This document shows positions 10,763-18,839 of a stretch of DNA of 62,051 nt, in pieces. The DNA comes from Nocardia ninae NBRC 108245. GTDB lineage: Bacteria > Actinomycetota > Actinomycetes > Mycobacteriales > Mycobacteriaceae. Location: the NCBI RefSeq assembly GCF_007990755.1, contig NZ_BJXA01000053.1:1-62051 (forward strand). Direction: 5' to 3'. Below the pieces are notes generated by a model, which was given only the letters and a program-made list of their open reading frames with translations, made no database searches and was not told the origin of the DNA. Position 1 is the stretch's first letter. The number at the start of each line of letters is the position of its first letter. Position numbers and translations under genes: made by a program.

Positions 10763-11863
10763 TTAGCCCGCGTTTTCGCTGTCGTTGGTTGAAAGCGCCT
10801 TTTGTAATGAATTGAAAACGGTGAGGCCCTGGCCGACCATTCCGTTGACGAGTTCGCTCACTCCGTCCGGCCCGTTGAGCACGGTCAGATTCGCGTTCGC
10901 CAATCCGTTCGACGCCTGCTTGACGATTTCCGGAAGTTGTTCGATCAACAACTGGTCCAACGCGATCCGGTTGTTCGACGCGGCCGCGGCGGCCTGGATC
11001 CTGGTGCGGTCGGCCTCCGCCTCGGCCAGGATGCGCACCCGTTCCGCCTCGGCCTGAGCGGGTTTCACCACTTCCGTCTGCAACTGCTGCTCGCGGAGCT
11101 CGGCTTCCTTGCGCGCCTGGATGGCTTGTGCGGTAAGCACTTCCTGCATCGCCATCGCCTCGGCGAGCGGACCCGACTGTGCCGCTTCGGCATTCGCCTT
11201 GTCGATGTCGCGCTGGTACTGCGCGCGCAGGATCGCGGTCTCGCGCTGGTACTCCGCCTGCCTGCGCAGCGACTCCTGCTCGGCCTGCGCGGAGAGCTGC
11301 GCCGCCTGCGATTGCGCGATCTGCGCGTCGCGCTGGACGGAGGCGTTGTGCGGCGCGGCCAGCGCCTGGATGTAGCCGAGGTTGCCATCGTCGATGGACT
11401 GGATCTGGAAGGAGTCCACCCAGAGCCCGATATTGCCCATCTCCACCTTGGAGGCCACGAGCACTTCATCGGCCAGCTTCTGGCGTTCCCGGATGATCTC
11501 CTCGACCGTCATCGAGCCGACGATCGAGCGCAGGTGGCCGGAGAAGATGCGGCCGGTGAGCACCGACATCTCCTTCTCCTGTTCGGACAGGAAGCGTTGC
11601 GCCGCATTGACGATCGAGGTGGTGTCGTTGGCGACCTTGAACGCGATCACCGCACGGACCTCGAGCTGGATCGCCTGCTTGGTGACGCAGCGCTCCTTGA
11701 TCTCGGCCTCGAACATGGCCAGCGAAAGGTAGCTGACCTTGCGGAACAGTGGAATCACCCAGCTGCCGCGGCCGATCACCACCTTGAACGGCGCGTTGTC
11801 CTTGCTCTTGGCGCCGCTGATCAGCATCGCCTCGTCCGGGTTGGGTACGTGGTAACCCAGCAC
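10763..11863 (-). CDS. SPFH/flotillin-like protein
   Basis: This 366-residue protein has an N-terminal SPFH/PHB domain (about 20-180) followed by a long Ala/Glu/Gln-rich coiled coil at about 185-300 (repeats such as QAEYQRETAILRAQYQRDID), as in flotillins. Flotillins organise membrane microdomains. Unlike many bacterial flotillins it shows no clear N-terminal membrane hairpin, so it may attach through a partner. GTG at 11863 has GGGAG upstream. The next gene downstream in position encodes a short NfeD-like OB-fold protein, the usual flotillin partner, which supports the call. Confidence 0.85.
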   Translation of the reverse strand: MLGYHVPNPDEAMLISGAKSKDNAPFKVVIGRGSWVIPLFRKVSYLSLAMFEAEIKERCVTKQAIQLEVRAVIAFKVANDTTSIVNAAQRFLSEQEKEMSVLTGRIFSGHLRSIVGSMTVEEIIRERQKLADEVLVASKVEMGNIGLWVDSFQIQSIDDGNLGYIQALAAPHNASVQRDAQIAQSQAAQLSAQAEQESLRRQAEYQRETAILRAQYQRDIDKANAEAAQSGPLAEAMAMQEVLTAQAIQARKEAELREQQLQTEVVKPAQAEAERVRILAEAEADRTRIQAAAAASNNRIALDQLLIEQLPEIVKQASNGLANANLTVLNGPDGVSELVNGMVGQGLTVFNSLQKALSTNDSENAG

Positions 11864-11893
11864 GGTTGTCTCCCTTACTGTTTCAGAACTGCT

Positions 11894-12127
11894 TCAGAAT
11901 GGTCGGGTCGGTTCCGGCGTCAGCGGAATCCACGGCACCACATCGAGGATGCGTCCCGGATTCACCTCGATGACCAGCACGGTCGCGCCCGCCGGAATCG
12001 GCTCGGCGGCGCGTGCGATGTACAGCTCTGTCCCCCCTCGAATTGCTATCAGTACCTCTCCGAGCAAGCCCGCACCCCGGATCGGCGATGTGAGCGTACC
12101 CGTCAAACCGACCACCGGGTCGCTCAT
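11894..12127 (-). CDS. NfeD-like OB-fold protein, short
   Basis: This 77-residue protein has a pattern of beta strands (GLTGTLTSPIRGAGLLGEVL, ELYIARAAEPIPAGATVLVI, GRILDVVPW) typical of the C-terminal soluble domain of NfeD proteins, without the membrane part. GGAGGAG is well placed before the ATG. It lies 30 bases upstream of the flotillin gene on the same strand, matching the known NfeD-flotillin pairing. The fold call comes from pattern and context. Confidence 0.7.
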   Translation of the reverse strand: MSDPVVGLTGTLTSPIRGAGLLGEVLIAIRGGTELYIARAAEPIPAGATVLVIEVNPGRILDVVPWIPLTPEPTRPF

Positions 12128-12281
12128 CGCACCGATCTCCTCCCGCTGGCAACCAGACCGCCACACTACGTCCCGCACAGCACGTTTCGGTATCCGAACG
12201 GAGACGGCGACCGTGACGCGATCGTTGTCACGCCGGAATGCCCAGGTTGCGGGTGTGTGATCGCCGTCGATAGCCCACGGG

Positions 12282-12294
12282 TATGTTGCTTGCA
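12282..12294 (+). promoter_or_regulatory. Possible leaderless promoter -10 of first caspase-STAND gene
   Basis: TATGTT at 12282-12287 fits an actinobacterial TANNNT -10 element and ends six bases before the ATG. No ribosome site is present, so transcription probably begins at the start codon. The second paralogue has the same arrangement. Confidence 0.45.
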
Positions 12295-15200
12295 TGGGAG
12301 GACGGCTCGCGTTGGTTGTCGGGTCCGAGTGTGCGGCGCTGGGGGAACTGGGGTTCACCGGCGAACTCGCCAACGGGTTGTACGCGAGCTTGACCGAGGT
12401 CGGTGGTTGGCGCTCGGCCACGGAGCTGGACGGGCCGGTGCTGGATCCGACTGCGGGGCAACTGGCGACGGTGATGGATGCGGCGTTCGCGGAGGCCGGG
12501 GAACGGCAGGCGACCTTGTTGCTCGCGTTCATCGGCCACGGCGTGGCGACCAGCGCCGAGGATTTCTATCTGCTCGCGCATGACTCGCCCGCAGTACCCA
12601 ACTCGCGCAACGCCTTTCACCTCACCCAGGAGATCAGGGAACGGCTGAACCAGTCGGCGCTGGACGGCCTGGTGGTGCTGGTCGATGCCTGCGAGACCGG
12701 GCAGGGCGTGATCGGTGCGGCGCGCCGGTGGACCGATCTGCTGGCCCAGTCGGCAGGGCGGATGGAGATGCTGGTCGCGGCCGGCGAGGGGCCCGCCTTT
12801 TCCGGCTGTTTCACCCGAACGATGCTGTCCACGTTCGACATCGGGCTGCCGCTGCGTGGCGAGAATCTGCTGCCCGCCGATCTGGTCGATCCGATCGCCG
12901 GGACCTGCGTTCATCAACAGCCGCAGTATCTTTCGTTCACCTCGGGTTCGGTGTCGGTGGCGCAGACCGCGGATCCGGGGCTCTGGCTGGTGCCCAATAC
13001 CGCGCGACATCGGGATGCCGTAAGTGGGCGCTCGGCAGCGGGATTCGTCGATCAGCTCACCCGCGGACTGCTGGTGACGCCGGATGTTCGTGAGCATCTC
13101 GACGCGATCGTGGACGCGGGCAGTCATCGCCTACGCGTGGTGATCGGCCCAGCCGGTGCGGGTAAGTCCACCTTGCTGGCCATGCTGATTCGACCGAGCC
13201 TGGTCGAAGGGCTCGCGGTGACGCCCGAATACGTCACCGCCGCAGTCTTTCTCACCGCCGCGAGCTCGATCGAGGCGGTCGCGGCCGAGCTGGCGGCGCA
13301 GCTGACCGCGCGACTGCCCGGATTCGCGGAGGCGGCGCAGACGGTGCGCGCGCACCGGGCCAGGGACGAGTTCGACATCTTCGACCTGACGGTGCGGCAC
13401 CCGCTGGCGCGACTGTCGACCGCGGGCAGGCGGGTCACGCTGGTGCTGGACGGGTTGAACCAACCGCAGGAAGGCACCCGGCGGTTGCTCGCCTCCGCCA
13501 TCGCCGATCTGACCAGGCGCGACGATCTGCGGCACGTGCGGGTCATCGTCGGCATCCGGGACGGGACGGGGGTCGAGCACTCGCCGAAGCTGGCGCACAT
13601 GCACCGGATCGAGGTGGGCGAACCCGCCGCCGACGACATCGCCACCGTGGTCGGGTCCGCGCGCGGCAGCGGGGCACCCGCAGACCCGGCGGACTGGGTG
13701 AACTGGATTCAGTCGTTGCTGGTCGAGACGCCGATGGCCGTCGGGGACGGGGCGCATGTGGTTTCCGGCGGCTGGCTGCTGGCTCGGATGTTGGCGGAGG
13801 TGGCGTCGAGCATTACCGACGGTGCGGTCGCCGCCGGTATCGGGTTCGACCGCATTGTCGCCTTGCGCGTCGAAGGGGCGCTGCGCGGCATGTCCGCCGA
13901 AACCACCGGTGCGGCAGGCACTTTCATCAGTGTGCTGGTCGCTGCCGGGGTCGGGCCGGTACTGCCGATCGAGCTGCTCGATGCCGCGATGACGGCGCTC
14001 GGCGTGGACTTCCACATCGCCCGGATCCGGGATATGACGGTAGCTTTGGGCGCGCTGGTGACGCGCAGCCGGCCGGGTACCCCGCGCGAGTCGCTCGGCG
14101 TGACGCACAGCGCCCTGCTGCCCGGACTGCGCAACGAGTGCAGGCTGCTCGGCGCGGAACTCGAGGACGCGCATCGGGCCATCGTGGCCGCGATCAAGGA
14201 GAGCACCAGCGACCGCGCCGCCGACTACGCGCGCGGCTCGGCCGTGCGGCACTGCCTCGCCTATCGGGATTCCGCCAGCGCCCTGCACTTCCTGGAACTG
14301 CTGGAGACCGCGCGATCCGCGGACAACCGCGATCTCTGGGCGGCCTGGGTGCCCGCCTTCATCGAGACGCTCGGCCCCGACCATCCAGATACCCTGACCA
14401 CCCGCAGTCGCGAGGCCTACCACCGCGCCGAGAGCGGCGATCTGGTCGGCGCCATTACCGCCTTCGAGCTGCTGCTGGCCGACCGCCTGCGCATTCTCGG
14501 CCCGGATCACCCCAAAGCCCTTGGCACGCGCGCGAACCTGGCCACCTACCGGGCCCGCTGCGGCGATTACATGGGCGCCCGCGCCGAGTACAAGCGGCTG
14601 TTCAGCGACCAGCGCCGCCTGCTCGGCCCCGATCATCCCGACACTCTGCGCACGCGAAACGACCTGGCGTCCAACCGCGCCGACCTGGGCGACCTCGTCG
14701 GCGCCATCGCCGATTTCGAAGAACTACGCGCCGACCGCTCCCGGGTATTGGGTCCCGAGCACCCGCAAACCCTGAAGACCCGCAACAGCCTGGCCTACTG
14801 GCGCGCCGAGACCGGCGACTTCCCCGGTGCCCGAGCCGATTTCGAGCAGATACTCGACGACTGCCAGCGTGTCTTCGGCCCCGACCGCCCCGCCACCCTG
14901 GCCGCGCGAAACAGCCTGGCCGCCTTCCGCGCTCGCAGCGGCGACCTGGCCGGCGCGGGCGCCGAGTTCAAACACCTGCTCGCCGACCGTCTCCGCGTGC
15001 TGGGCCCCGACCACCCCGACACCCTCACCACCCGAAGCTCCTTGGCGAGTTACCGTGCCGACGCCGGTGACCTCCCCGGCGCGATCGCCGATTTCGCCCG
15101 CCTGCTCGCCGACCGGCTGCGTGTGCTCGGCCCCGACCACCCCGACACCTTCGCCACCCGCAATGAACTGGCCGCCCGCCAAGCCCAGAACGGTGACATC

Positions 15201-15326
15201 GCCGGCGCCGTCGCCGAACTCGAAGTCCTCCTTGTCGCCGAACTCCGCGCCCTGGGCCCCACCCACGCCGCCACCATCCGCACCCAAACCACCCTCGCCT
15301 ACTGGCGCGAGCAGCTCGGGCGGTGA
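12294..15326 (+). CDS. Caspase-like / STAND NTPase / TPR protein (first of tandem pair)
   Basis: This is a 1010-residue soluble protein. Residues 1-235 form a caspase-like (peptidase C14-type) domain with His82 in AFIGHG and Cys133 in VLVDACETGQG, the expected catalytic dyad. Residues 280-430 are a P-loop NTPase with Walker A GPAGAGKST at 285-293 and Walker B VTLVLDG ending at Asp386-Gly387, of STAND type. A helical region follows to about 690. Seven full 42-residue TPR-like repeats (LGPDHPDTL...GDLVGAI...LLADRLR) and one partial repeat then run to the C-terminus. Sensor repeats, switch NTPase and protease effector together match the layout of NLR-like immune or cell-death proteins. The role in phage defence is inference. 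A close paralogue follows directly. Confidence 0.85.
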   Translation: MGGRLALVVGSECAALGELGFTGELANGLYASLTEVGGWRSATELDGPVLDPTAGQLATVMDAAFAEAGERQATLLLAFIGHGVATSAEDFYLLAHDSPAVPNSRNAFHLTQEIRERLNQSALDGLVVLVDACETGQGVIGAARRWTDLLAQSAGRMEMLVAAGEGPAFSGCFTRTMLSTFDIGLPLRGENLLPADLVDPIAGTCVHQQPQYLSFTSGSVSVAQTADPGLWLVPNTARHRDAVSGRSAAGFVDQLTRGLLVTPDVREHLDAIVDAGSHRLRVVIGPAGAGKSTLLAMLIRPSLVEGLAVTPEYVTAAVFLTAASSIEAVAAELAAQLTARLPGFAEAAQTVRAHRARDEFDIFDLTVRHPLARLSTAGRRVTLVLDGLNQPQEGTRRLLASAIADLTRRDDLRHVRVIVGIRDGTGVEHSPKLAHMHRIEVGEPAADDIATVVGSARGSGAPADPADWVNWIQSLLVETPMAVGDGAHVVSGGWLLARMLAEVASSITDGAVAAGIGFDRIVALRVEGALRGMSAETTGAAGTFISVLVAAGVGPVLPIELLDAAMTALGVDFHIARIRDMTVALGALVTRSRPGTPRESLGVTHSALLPGLRNECRLLGAELEDAHRAIVAAIKESTSDRAADYARGSAVRHCLAYRDSASALHFLELLETARSADNRDLWAAWVPAFIETLGPDHPDTLTTRSREAYHRAESGDLVGAITAFELLLADRLRILGPDHPKALGTRANLATYRARCGDYMGARAEYKRLFSDQRRLLGPDHPDTLRTRNDLASNRADLGDLVGAIADFEELRADRSRVLGPEHPQTLKTRNSLAYWRAETGDFPGARADFEQILDDCQRVFGPDRPATLAARNSLAAFRARSGDLAGAGAEFKHLLADRLRVLGPDHPDTLTTRSSLASYRADAGDLPGAIADFARLLADRLRVLGPDHPDTFATRNELAARQAQNGDIAGAVAELEVLLVAELRALGPTHAATIRTQTTLAYWREQLGR

Positions 15327-15346
15327 TTCCCGCTGATCCGCACCGA

Positions 15347-15400
15347 CTCTCGGGATCCGCACCGCTGGGGGCACCCCCGAGTGGGTGCGGGTCCCGAGAG
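15347..15400. repeat. Intergenic hairpin, copy 1 of a dispersed repeat
   Basis: CTCTCGGGA-T-CCGCACC (15347-15363) pairs with GGTGCGGGTCCCGAGAG (15384-15400), and a GGGGG/CCCCC hairpin is nested in the loop. It lies between the two paralogues and could terminate the first transcript. A near-identical right arm recurs at 54521. Confidence 0.6.
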
Positions 15401-15430
15401 CCAGTGCAGGTTTCCGCATAGCGCGCACGG

Positions 15431-15444
15431 TATGTTCCCTGGCA
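15431..15444 (+). promoter_or_regulatory. Possible leaderless promoter -10 of second caspase-STAND gene
   Basis: TATGTT at 15431-15436 ends seven bases before the ATG at 15444. Upstream, ATAGC and CACGG are shared with the first paralogue, so the promoter appears to have been duplicated with the gene. Confidence 0.45.
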
Positions 15445-18400
15445 TGGGAGGACGGCTTGCGCTGGTGGTGGGGTCGGAGTGTGCGGCGTTGGGGGAGCTG
15501 GGGTTCACGGATCGGCTGGCTGCTGATCTGTATGCGCGGCTGCGGGAGTCGGGCGGGTGGGGGAGTGCGACGGAGGTCGACGGGCCGGTGCTCGATCCGA
15601 CTGCGGGGGAACTGGTTACGGCGATCGATGCGGCGTTCGACCGGGCTTCGGAGCAGCGGGCGACGCTGTTGGTCGCGTTCATCGGGCATGGGACGGCTAC
15701 CAATTCGGGGGACTTCTATCTGATGGCGCGCGATTCGCCGGTAGTGCCGCGGTCGGACAACGCGTTTCATTTGACGCAGGGGATCAGGGAGCGGCTCAAT
15801 ACTTCTGCGCTGGACGGGTTGATCGTGTTGGTCGACGCGTGTGAGACCGAGCAGGGGGTGCGGGGTGCCGCACGGTTGTGGACCGGGCCGCTGGCGCGGT
15901 CGGCGGGGCGGATGGAGTTGCTGGTGGCGGCGGGGGACGGGCCTGCTTATGCGGGATGTTTCACTCGCACAATGCTTTCCACCTTCGGTGCCGGACTGCC
16001 GCTGCGTGGCGAGAATCTGCTGCCGTACGACCTGGTCGATCCGGTCGCGCGCGGTTGTGCCCTGCAACAGCCGTTGCACTTGTCGTTCACCGCGGGCACG
16101 GTGTCCACGAGTCCCGGTGGTGATGCCGGATTGTGGTTGGTACCCAACGCGGCTCGGCGCAGAGACGCGCTCACCGGTCGGCCCGCGGCCGGTGTCGTCG
16201 ACCAGTTGACCCGCCGATTGCTGTTCACCGACACAATGCGTGAGTGCCTCGCCGACGTGATCGACGCGGGTGGCCAGCGGTTGCGCGCGGTGGTCGGTCC
16301 GCCGGGCGCAGGCAAGTCGACCCTGATGGCGCTGCTGATCCGGCCCAGCGTGGTCGATGGTCTGGCCATCGCGCCCGAATATGTCACTGCGGCAGTCTTT
16401 CTCACGGCGAGCAGCTCGCTCGAATCGGTGGCCGAGGAGTTGTCTGCTCAGCTGGCGGAGCGAGTTCCGGGGTACGTCGAAGCACTGCGCGCCGCTCAGG
16501 AACATGCCGAAGCTGCTGAATCGGATGTTTTCGACATCTGTGTCCGGCGGCCGCTGGCCGCGGTATCGAGGCCGGGTAGCCGGATCACGCTCGTGCTGGA
16601 CGGCCTCGATCAGCCGGAAGCGGGCAGCCGAAAACTGTTGGTAGCGGCGGTCGCCGAGCTCACCGGTTGCGATGATCTGCGGCATGTCCGCGTCATCGCC
16701 GCGATCCGGAAGGGATCCGGCACCGACCGGCACCCGGCCCTCGCCCACATGCATCGCGTCGCGCTGCCCGAGCCGACCGCCGCCGACATTGCCGCCCTCG
16801 TGCAGGCCGGGTGGCGTGAGCTCGTTCCGGTTGCCCCGACCAGTTCGACCGACGCGCCCACTGGACTCGGTGCGCCTGCGAAGTCGCCGAGCGGCACAGT
16901 GCCCACACCCCAAGGGCTGCCGCCCTGGCTCGAAGAGACAAGCAGTTCGGACGACGGCCCGGTTTGGGGTACACCGCAGCCGGACATTGCCGAGGACGAA
17001 GACGAGGCCGTCAGGGCGCCGGAAGCCGGGGGCTGGCTGCTGGCTCGGTTGCAAAGCGAAGTCCTGCCGTCGTTGAGCGGGCGCTCGGTGTCGGTCGGCA
17101 CCGAACTGGAAGCCGTTGTGGCCCAGCGAGTTCGCACCGCGATGTACACGGCCGGATCCGCTGCGGCCGGCTCGATCGGTCCGATGCTCGCCATCCTCGT
17201 GGCGGCCGGGGCAGGCCCGGTGTTACCCATCGAGCTGCTCGAGAGCGCGATGTCGTCGTTCCGTGAAGACATCACGTCGGTCCGTATCCGCGATATCACG
17301 GTCAGCCTGGGCGCGTTGCTCACGCGCAGCAACCCGGGCACCACGCAGGAGTCCCTCGGCATCGCCCACAACGCACTGCTGCCTGCGCTGACAGCTCAGT
17401 TCGAGTGGTTCGACGTGGCGATGAAAGACGCGCACCGCGCGATCATCGCGGCCACGATGCGGTGCGCCAGCGCCCGAGCTGTCGAGTACGCCCGTGGATC
17501 GACGGCCCGCCACTATCTCGAATGCGGAGACAGCGGCCGAGCGCTGGCCTACCTCACCACCCTCGAGACGCCGCGCGCCGCCGACAACCGCGATCTGTGG
17601 GCCGCGTGGTTGCCGTCGATCGAGGCAGTGGTCGGTGCGGTGCATCCTGATGCGTTGCAGGCGCGGGAGTATCTGGCGCTGCGGCGGGCGGAGAGCGGCG
17701 ATCTGCCCGGTGCGATCGCCGAGTACACGCGCCTGCTCGATGACCAGCTCACGATCCTCGGCCCGGACCATCCGAACACTTTCACGACACGCCATCACCT
17801 GGCCGTGTGCCGTGGTGAGTCCGGTGATGCGGCGGACGCCGCGGCAGAGTTGACCCGGGTCCTCGCCGACCGGCGCCGAGTGCTCGGCGCAGACCACGCG
17901 GCGACCTTGGCTACGCGGAACAGACTCATTTCACTTAAGGCGCTGCGGGGCGACCTGTCCGGCGCCATCGCCGAGGCGCGGCAATTGCTGGACGATCAGC
18001 GTCGCATCCTGGGCTCCGATCACCCCGACACCATGGCAACCCGTAGCAACCTCGCGGGATATCTCAGCCAGAACGGGGACTCGGCGGGCGCCATAACGGA
18101 GCTGTCGGAGCTACTCACGGATCAGCGCGAGGTGCTGGGGCCCGACGACAGCCGGGTGCGGCTCACCCGCGCGAAACTCGCTACTGTGCGAGCGCGCGAT
18201 GGCGACATCGCCGGGGCGATCGCGGCGGCCGAAACCGTGCTGGCCGAACAACTTCGCCTGCACGGACCCGACGACCCGAGCGTGCTGCGGACGCGCACGA
18301 ACCTCGCGGCCTATCGCGCACAGGCCGGCGACCTGGCGCGTGCGACGGCCGAGCTGGAAGACGTGGTGGCCGACCGGATGCGGGTGCAGGGCCGGGGTCA

Positions 18401-18839
18401 TCGCGAAACCCTCTACAGCAGAGGCAATCTCGCGTCGCTCCGGGCACGCGGTGGCGACTCGGCCGGTGCGATCGCGGAGGCCGAGCGGGTCCTCGCCGAT
18501 CAGCTGCGCGTCCTGGGCCCGGACCACCCCGACGTGCTGGTCACGCGCACCAATCTTGTGTCGTATCGGGAGCGGTCGGGCGACGTGCAGCGCGCTGTGC
18601 ACGACGCCGAGCAACTGCTCGCCGACCGCCTCCGGGTACTCGGCCCTGACCATCCGGACACGCTGCTCACCCGCAACAACCTCGCCGCCTATCGCGCGCA
18701 CGCCGGCGATATCGCGGGCGCGGTAGCCGACTTCGCGCGCCTGCTCACCGACCGGGAGCGGGTGTTGGGCGCTGATCATCGGGACACCGAGGTGACCCGA
18801 AATCACCTGGCGCACTGGCGCTCCCGACTCCGTGAATAG
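15444..18839 (+). CDS. Caspase-like / STAND NTPase / TPR protein (second of tandem pair)
   Basis: This 1131-residue paralogue of the upstream protein keeps colinear landmarks: His82 in AFIGHG, Cys133 in VLVDACETEQG, Walker A GPPGAGKST at 285-293 and Walker B ITLVLDGLD. It differs after the NTPase, where a low-complexity linker of about 65 residues (Pro/Ser/Thr then Asp/Glu-rich) replaces a shorter segment. It also differs in the sensor end, which has nine full 42-residue TPR-like repeats plus a partial one. The repeats are less uniform than in the first copy. Start chosen by identity with the first protein (MGGRLALVVGSECAALGEL); no ribosome site is visible. The pair probably arose by duplication, and the sensing regions then diverged. 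Confidence 0.85.
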   Translation: MGGRLALVVGSECAALGELGFTDRLAADLYARLRESGGWGSATEVDGPVLDPTAGELVTAIDAAFDRASEQRATLLVAFIGHGTATNSGDFYLMARDSPVVPRSDNAFHLTQGIRERLNTSALDGLIVLVDACETEQGVRGAARLWTGPLARSAGRMELLVAAGDGPAYAGCFTRTMLSTFGAGLPLRGENLLPYDLVDPVARGCALQQPLHLSFTAGTVSTSPGGDAGLWLVPNAARRRDALTGRPAAGVVDQLTRRLLFTDTMRECLADVIDAGGQRLRAVVGPPGAGKSTLMALLIRPSVVDGLAIAPEYVTAAVFLTASSSLESVAEELSAQLAERVPGYVEALRAAQEHAEAAESDVFDICVRRPLAAVSRPGSRITLVLDGLDQPEAGSRKLLVAAVAELTGCDDLRHVRVIAAIRKGSGTDRHPALAHMHRVALPEPTAADIAALVQAGWRELVPVAPTSSTDAPTGLGAPAKSPSGTVPTPQGLPPWLEETSSSDDGPVWGTPQPDIAEDEDEAVRAPEAGGWLLARLQSEVLPSLSGRSVSVGTELEAVVAQRVRTAMYTAGSAAAGSIGPMLAILVAAGAGPVLPIELLESAMSSFREDITSVRIRDITVSLGALLTRSNPGTTQESLGIAHNALLPALTAQFEWFDVAMKDAHRAIIAATMRCASARAVEYARGSTARHYLECGDSGRALAYLTTLETPRAADNRDLWAAWLPSIEAVVGAVHPDALQAREYLALRRAESGDLPGAIAEYTRLLDDQLTILGPDHPNTFTTRHHLAVCRGESGDAADAAAELTRVLADRRRVLGADHAATLATRNRLISLKALRGDLSGAIAEARQLLDDQRRILGSDHPDTMATRSNLAGYLSQNGDSAGAITELSELLTDQREVLGPDDSRVRLTRAKLATVRARDGDIAGAIAAAETVLAEQLRLHGPDDPSVLRTRTNLAAYRAQAGDLARATAELEDVVADRMRVQGRGHRETLYSRGNLASLRARGGDSAGAIAEAERVLADQLRVLGPDHPDVLVTRTNLVSYRERSGDVQRAVHDAEQLLADRLRVLGPDHPDTLLTRNNLAAYRAHAGDIAGAVADFARLLTDRERVLGADHRDTEVTRNHLAHWRSRLRE

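What the first reader, a model, noticed from the sequence alone, without database searches (positions are those of the whole stretch)
12294..18839. Tandem caspase-like / STAND NTPase / TPR proteins resembling bacterial NLRs
Both proteins have the caspase dyad in place (His82 and Cys133), a STAND-type P-loop and a C-terminal array of 42-residue repeats. Seen in sequence: motifs, order and tandem paralogy. Known: such protease-NTPase-repeat layouts occur in animal and bacterial immune or cell-death sensors. Inferred: the pair could be a two-sensor anti-phage or self-killing module. No adjacent known defence gene was found.
Basis: partly seen in the sequence, partly recalled or inferred. Interest (0 to 1): 0.85.

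Follow-up and report, generated by a model that had tools for sequence, protein, structure and literature searches.

The report
Caspase sensors paired with gated lipase
Two neighbouring genes of a Nocardia bacterium encode caspase-type proteases fused to a molecular switch and a repeat sensor, and they appear to work with a lipase-like enzyme encoded elsewhere in the genome, which looks built to be switched on by being cut.

Summary

New is the partner. An alpha/beta-hydrolase gene lies head-to-head with the caspase gene in 7 of 9 loci titled outside Nocardia; in the window's genome it is encoded in trans. Of 150 Nocardia genomes, 40 have both, 1 only the caspase (catalytic His lost), 0 only a close hydrolase. 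Genomes carry 1-6 caspase sensors but usually one close hydrolase.

The hydrolase has two variable loops, each with a conserved [Q/M]-G dipeptide, flanking a two-helix segment: 45 of 82 distinct relatives have both, all close hydrolases; two others nearly so. In plasmid loci 6 of 7 hydrolases beside a similar caspase have both, 0 of 5 others.

Best explanation: NLR-like sensors whose caspase cuts a gated lipase twice to kill or arrest the cell, as Canu does with a nuclease. Pairing is well supported; cleavage, lipid target and phage trigger are inferred.

The parts
12294..15326 (+). Copy 1 (a): caspase-STAND-TPR protein, 1010 aa; length 1009-1010 in the 7 tandem loci compared
12294..12998 (+). 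Copy 1 caspase domain, residues 1-235; His82 at 12537-12539, Cys133 at 12690-12692
13146..13172 (+). Copy 1 P-loop GPAGAGKST, residues 285-293; Walker B Asp386 at 13449-13451 (motif DGLNQP)
14364..15323 (+). Copy 1 TPR array, 8 units of 42 residues (about residues 691-1010)
15444..18839 (+). Copy 2 (b): caspase-STAND-TPR paralog, 1131 aa; faster evolving, 803-1133 aa in the 7 tandem loci
15444..16148 (+). Copy 2 caspase domain (residues 1-235), His82 and Cys133 present, 74% identical to copy 1
16296..16322 (+). Copy 2 P-loop GPPGAGKST
16845..17075 (+). Copy 2 low-complexity insertion (approx. residues 468-544), mostly absent from copy 1, with a Q-G dipeptide at residues 490-491
17541..18836 (+). 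Copy 2 TPR array, 9-10 units (about residues 700-1131)

Best explanation
The two genes encode NLR-like sensors. The C-terminal TPR array senses a trigger, the STAND NTPase switches and brings copies together, and proximity activates the N-terminal caspase. The activated caspase then cuts an alpha/beta-hydrolase of lipase type (in this genome G000:C22:49337-50254, read as L132:8338-9258) in two disordered loops, each marked by a conserved [Q/M]-G dipeptide. That frees or removes the roughly 50-residue two-helix segment between them and turns on the hydrolase, which damages lipids and kills or arrests the cell. Several diversified sensors feed one shared hydrolase. Shown: domains, fold, dyad, co-occurrence, adjacency in relatives, dual-site conservation. 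Inferred: oligomerisation, cleavage, activation, lipid substrate, trigger.
Against: No cleavage, lipase or phage assay exists. Orthocaspases are said to cut after positively charged residues (PMC6426788, start of abstract), and the D-x-C motif here is of that type (recalled), so cutting at Q/M-G would be unusual. The link between the mark and the caspase type is not strict: plasmid locus L226 has a strong caspase partner but lacks site 1; L228 has only site 2 and L217 only site 1 (as MG) beside weak caspases; and two distant Nocardia hydrolases, L213 and L216, dropped by my first motif filter, have MG at site 2 and a QG three residues past site 1 beside weakly scoring caspase proteins. Close and distant hydrolases are separate branches, so shared ancestry explains part of the contrast, and relatedness inflates the profile statistic. 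No Foldseek match of the hydrolase passes E 0.001 (best 0.018) and its Pfam matches are below cut-off. Four genomes (G071, G077, G129, G157) have only a distant hydrolase and no family caspase. L104 (Kibdelosporangium) has no adjacent hydrolase.
Confidence: 0.5

Rival explanations
1. The caspase-STAND-TPR protein and the hydrolase act in one pathway, but without proteolysis of the hydrolase: the Q-G dipeptides are structural turns or part of a substrate or partner contact, and the hydrolase acts in parallel or upstream.
For: Kaur et al. infer only that caspase and alpha/beta-hydrolase 'operate together'. Q-G could form turns; plasmid locus L226 lacks site 1, and L213, L216, L217 and L228 show one or both marks beside weakly scoring caspases. 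Known orthocaspase specificity is basic P1 (abstract).
Against: Both dipeptides sit in low-confidence, variable loops, both are missing from the 13 other hydrolases, and the same Q-to-M swap is seen at both sites.
Confidence: 0.29
2. The sensors act alone: the activated caspase degrades general cell proteins and the hydrolase is an unrelated gene carried by the same lineages.
For: In the window's genome the genes are unlinked, and the hydrolase has a stable syntenic place in 6 of 6 genomes examined.
Against: Adjacency in 7 of 9 loci titled outside Nocardia, adjacency in both non-Nocardia hits of the class sample, and a caspase-profile hit at E<1e-4 beside 16 of 20 broader hydrolase loci looked at, two of which are those same two hits.
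Confidence: 0.1
3. The pathway serves development, stress or competition in filamentous growth, not defence against phages. This concerns the trigger and can hold together with the best explanation.
For: The main locus lies in a conserved chromosomal neighbourhood in several Nocardia; PADLOC finds nothing specific in 10 neighbours and the phage collection has no match.
Against: Patchy presence (41 of 150 Nocardia genomes), copy number variation, decayed copies, sensor swapping (TPR, WD40, possibly membrane-anchored) and plasmid carriage of related pairs look like conflict genes.
Confidence: 0.3

Closest known systems
VMAP ternary systems (MoxR-vWA) with caspase and alpha/beta-hydrolase pair (Kaur et al. 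2020, PMC7159879; passages read)
   Same: A caspase domain beside an alpha/beta-hydrolase. Seven plasmid loci that look like this type (hydrolase, caspase-profile protein; in six an AAA or MoxR ATPase annotated next) have a caspase scoring over 90 bits with our profile, and 6 of 7 hydrolases show both Q-G sites.
   Different: There the caspase is fused to the VMAP protein beside MoxR and vWA genes. Here it is fused to STAND-TPR, with no MoxR or vWA among the neighbours scanned, and the hydrolase is often in trans. The Q-G sites do not appear in the passages I read.
Canu caspase-nuclease defence (PMC12799240; outline and section 8 read)
   Same: MALT1-like caspase; effector gated by two disordered insertions with conserved glycine; TPR or Ig-like domains at the loci.
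   Different: The effector there is a metallo-beta-lactamase-fold nuclease; here a lipase-type alpha/beta-hydrolase. There CanAB is a complex; here caspase, NTPase and sensor are one protein.
EACC1-caspase two-gene systems (PMC7159879; passages read)
   Same: Distant caspase homology (NCBIfam caspase_w_EACC1 E 3e-9 and 1e-10); variable C-terminal domains.
   Different: Score 37-41 against a cut-off of 140; no EACC1-like gene upstream on the same strand. Small genes that look EACC1-like precede only distant homologs L042, L043 and L045 (label by eye).
Prokaryotic metacaspase-NACHT-WD40 and caspase-TPR proteins (Asplund-Samuelsson et al. 2012, PMC3501461; passages read)
   Same: Caspase + NTPase + repeat architecture.
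   Different: The passages read mention operon neighbours but no alpha/beta-hydrolase partner for this architecture.
Bacterial NLR-like defence proteins (Avs, bNACHT)
   Same: STAND switch with repeat sensor (general knowledge).
   Different: PADLOC matches are confined to stretches around the P-loop (best E 0.0012).

Membership tests
Caspase superfamily (clan CD, C14) | Caspase-hemoglobinase fold | tested here: met
Caspase superfamily (clan CD, C14) | His-Cys dyad | tested here: met
   His82 and Cys133 in 55 of 55 rows; His82 17 of 18 and Cys133 18 of 18; distances not measured
Caspase superfamily (clan CD, C14) | Pfam Peptidase_C14 curated cut-off | tested here: not met
   protein 1 no match, protein 2 20.5 bits against 21.4
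STAND NTPase | P-loop NTPase profile above cut-off, Walker A and Walker B Asp | tested here: met
   NPHP3_N 32.6 and 37.4 against 24.8; AAA_16 37.5 against 32.6 in protein 1 only; K291 and D386 invariant in 18; one outgroup, L103, lacks the P-loop Lys
STAND NTPase | Winged-helix element and ADP-to-ATP switching with oligomerisation | not tested
   NTPase region was not modelled
NACHT subfamily | Pfam NACHT cut-off 26.7 | tested here: not met
   25.7 and 16.6 bits
EACC1-caspase system | NCBIfam caspase_w_EACC1 cut-off 140 | tested here: not met
   36.8 and 41.4
EACC1-caspase system | EACC1 gene immediately 5' on the same strand | tested here: not met
   nearest called upstream genes are on the minus strand; no EACC1 profile was run
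VMAP ternary system | MoxR, vWA and VMAP genes in the locus | tested here: not met
   the 9 neighbours scanned match LigD parts, CSD, SPFH/flotillin, DUF4267, ABC transporter parts, MgtC or nothing
Alpha/beta-hydrolase (partner) | alpha/beta-hydrolase fold | tested here: met
Alpha/beta-hydrolase (partner) | Catalytic triad | tested here: inconclusive
   invariant candidates S193 (HSLG), D251 and H286 in 18 sequences; geometry not measured
Canu | Adjacent gated MBL-fold nuclease | tested here: not met
   no nuclease among the neighbours scanned

The most novel reading that the evidence does not exclude
A many-sensors, one-executioner circuit in Nocardia: dispersed caspase-NLRs with swappable sensors (TPR arrays of different length, or a membrane-spanning form with an outside domain) all converge on a single lipase kept off by a two-helix gate with two identical protease marks, [Q/M]-G. 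The same dual-marked lipase is reused by unrelated core systems (STAND and MoxR-vWA-VMAP). It would be a bacterial counterpart of inflammasome-caspase-gasdermin signalling with a lipase as executioner and a caspase of unusual Q/M specificity.
Probability: 0.4. Interest if true: 0.87.

Novelty: new variant of a known kind. Interest (0 to 1): 0.72.

Why it matters
Caspase-STAND proteins in actinobacteria have long been called apoptosis-like without a known target. This work names a specific candidate substrate that is separately encoded and could be missed by defence-island searches, and names two exact sites in it, so the question becomes a simple cleavage assay. If right, it extends the protease-gated pro-effector principle (Canu, gasdermin) to lipases and shows sensor and effector separating in the genome while remaining tied.

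Tried and rejected
EACC1 system: rejected on score and missing 5' gene. FxSxx-COOH peptide system: the NCBIfam match (170 and 192 bits against a cut-off of 300) covers only the C-terminal TPR part in its best stretch. Known defence family: PADLOC on the two proteins, on 10 neighbours and on 3 hydrolases gave nothing that I take as specific. Positive selection on the TPRs: dN/dS stays below 1 in every comparison made, so no evidence. Auto-processing at Q-G: QG at 137-138 just after Cys133 occurs in the window's clade but not in L027, L028, L030, L032, L036, L039, L040 or L041; a QG in the copy-2 insertion is in W15, L046b, L048b, L050b and L051b but not in L047b or L049b; left as a remark. Hydrolase against the PDB by sequence profile: one match at E 0.7, a GNAT acetyltransferase. 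Phage collection: no match to residues 1-470. Plasmids: 43 records with related hydrolases, all under 60% identity; I read 12 of the 15 listed: H1-H4, H7 and H9-H15, leaving out H5, H6 and H8. For the broader hydrolase survey I read 20 loci: 13 of the 48 genomes and 7 distant Nocardia copies; 3 of 20 had no caspase-profile hit beside them (L206, L211, L214) and L207 only at E 0.94.

I re-ran it without that filter: 82 distinct sequences, 45 with both sites, 2 with one in register (L213, L216, which also have a QG three residues past site 1), 35 with neither. Of the 13 'other' hydrolases, by my matching of loci 10 lie beside a caspase-profile hit, 2 do not (L211, L214) and 1 was not looked at (L192).

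Literature: searches listed no paper that I recognised as describing this pairing with STAND-TPR caspases or the Q-G sites; only open-licence full texts are held; three papers were read in passages (PMC7159879, PMC8195603, PMC3501461) and one in outline and one section (PMC12799240). A bench role cannot be decided by these tools.

Full report

EVOLUTION OF THE PAIR. The tandem occurs in the window and in 6 of the 69 loci, all Nocardia. Copy 1 keeps 1009-1010 residues in all 7; copy 2 varies from 803 to 1133. Between the two window copies identity is 74% in the caspase, 51% in the NTPase and 53% in the TPR part, and dN/dS is 0.18, 0.37 and 0.35. All values are below 1, so both copies are under constraint, the protease most. 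Elsewhere in the genus the same caspase-NTPase carries TPR arrays of different length (proteins of 946-1465 residues), or, in L028, L039 and L041, a hydrophobic segment followed by a low-complexity linker and a further domain instead of TPRs (the membrane and Ig-like reading is by eye, and Pfam gave only AAA_16 for L028).

THE PARTNER. In relatives an alpha/beta-hydrolase gene beginning M-x-x-[IV]-V-[LF]-V-H-G-I lies head-to-head with the caspase gene: 14 of 69 loci, one more in convergent order. Among the 9 loci whose titles are not Nocardia, 7 have it (L087, L099, L101, L103, L105, L111, L112; the L099 copy contains a stop as read); L104 has none and L106 is cut off 184 bp upstream. In the window's genome it is on another contig, G000:C22:49337-50254, in a neighbourhood shared by all 6 genomes I looked at. 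Over 150 Nocardia genomes (the window's included) 40 have both the caspase family (E<=1e-20) and a close hydrolase (E<=1e-60), 1 has the caspase only, 0 the close hydrolase only, 109 neither; 4 of the 109 have a distant hydrolase. The exception, G035, has lost the catalytic His (Tyr). Caspase matches run from 1 to 6 per genome (in some genomes a match is a fragment). Close hydrolases are one per genome except two in G033 and G167, and in G069 what looks like one gene in two contig pieces. By coordinates, 12 of the 40 have the two genes side by side and 28 do not (contig ends could hide a few, e.g. G069). Caveats: relatedness is not corrected; in these genus-wide searches at most 10 (caspase) or 15 (hydrolase) first-look candidates per genome were scored.

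BEYOND THE GENUS. In a sample of 394 genomes of the class (the window's included; 5-6 candidates scored in each), the caspase profile finds 3 (window, G261, G403), and both others have the hydrolase next door. The hydrolase profile finds 48 genomes. In 20 broader hydrolase loci that I fetched, G261 and G403 among them, a caspase-profile hit at E<1e-4 is next to the hydrolase in 16, a marginal one (0.94) in 1, none in 3. Three of the four weakly scoring partners that I scanned with Pfam carry WD40 repeats (L198, L200, L213) and one shows only caspase and AAA matches (L209); L197 (G403) carries TPRs. So hydrolase plus caspase-STAND with swappable sensor is a wider actinobacterial theme; the pairing of caspase and alpha/beta-hydrolase was reported for MoxR-vWA-VMAP systems by Kaur et al. 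(PMC7159879).

THE DUAL MARK. The hydrolase alignment has two stretches where nearly everything varies except one dipeptide: Q70-G71 and Q123-G124 (L132 numbering). In 43 non-identical close hydrolases site 1 is QG in 42 and MG in 1, site 2 QG in 41 and MG in 2; in 13 hydrolases outside the family neither site is Q/M-G. That set had passed a motif filter; without it, 82 distinct sequences give 45 with both sites (all close hydrolases), 35 with neither and 2 in between: L213 and L216, distant Nocardia hydrolases beside weakly scoring caspase proteins, have MG at site 2 and a QG three residues past site 1. In 14 representatives below 75% identity there are 17 conserved dipeptides; ranked by variability of their flanks, the top two are these. 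Two random dipeptides of this family coincide with a chance of about 0.7%. In the model (of the L090 protein, residue numbers one lower at site 2) site 1 falls in the only segment under pLDDT 50 (67-74), site 2 in blocks of 62-66, and helices 79-99 and 103-113 lie between them. That in-between part is more variable than the rest (mean entropy 2.09 against 1.38 bits).

A TEST OF THE MARK. I looked at hydrolases on plasmids, taken by the ranking of a search and not by their sites. Two loci came first; having seen that one of them (L218) carried both marks, I fetched ten more and scored all 12. Seven have a partner scoring above 90 bits with the caspase profile; in six of these seven an AAA or MoxR ATPase is annotated next, and L223 is unannotated. 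Six of the seven hydrolases have both Q-G sites; L226 has only site 2. Five have a weak (<30 bits) or no caspase-profile partner; none has both sites (L228 has site 2, L217 has MG at site 1). The mark thus largely follows the type of caspase partner across two different core systems, as expected if it is what the caspase reads. Shared ancestry of this hydrolase branch remains an alternative reason.

MECHANISM. Best-supported: sensor - STAND switch - caspase - two cuts - open lipase - membrane damage. The closest precedent is Canu, in which a MALT1-like caspase turns on a nuclease with two disordered gating insertions (PMC12799240). The hydrolase is a lipase/esterase-fold protein; its best structural neighbours include SOBER1, RBBP9, Nir2 and lysosomal phospholipase A2, all within one Z unit, so substrate class is not settled. 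Invariant Ser193, Asp251 and His286 are triad candidates. Against it: orthocaspases are described as cutting after basic residues (PMC6426788, start of abstract), so Q/M at P1 would be unusual; the cut could also be after the glycine or nearby.

VERDICT. The hydrolase partner in trans, the many-to-one arrangement and the dual Q-G mark are, as far as nine literature searches in the held library show, not described for this family. I file it as a new variant of a known kind.

Noticed in passing
window 10763-12164 and loci L026, L029, L031, L033, L034, L035, L038: The copy-1 gene sits at a conserved chromosomal site beside an SPFH/flotillin gene (Pfam Band_7, Flot), a cold-shock gene and LigD primase and ligase genes; L034 was called without the flotillin gene and L038 shows no LigD genes in the part listed. 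A small gene between looks NfeD-like (by eye, no Pfam match). Whether membrane microdomains matter for the pathway is open.
   Followed up: partly
L028, L039, L041: Family members in which the TPR array is replaced by a hydrophobic segment, a low-complexity linker (in L039 with a run of 46 glutamines) and a C-terminal domain, suggesting a membrane-anchored sensor.
   Followed up: no
window 12702-12707, 15852-15857 and 16911-16916: Q-G dipeptides just after the catalytic Cys in both copies and in the insertion of copy 2: possible self-processing sites in this clade only.
   Followed up: partly
L042, L043, L045: Distant caspase proteins preceded by a small 116-125-residue gene that looks like EACC1 (by eye), so Nocardia may also carry the EACC1 type.
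   Followed up: no
L217 (Rhodococcus ruber plasmid): A related hydrolase and a weakly scoring caspase protein annotated as WD40 on a plasmid beside a helicase, a PIN-domain gene, recombinases and a transposase.
   Followed up: partly
Walker B, residues 386-391 of both copies: DGL[DN]QP in both copies: the acidic residue often found after the Walker B Asp in NACHT proteins (recalled) is Gln in many members, and Asp389 is Asn in copy 1 and its closest relatives, which may mean slow nucleotide hydrolysis.
   Followed up: no
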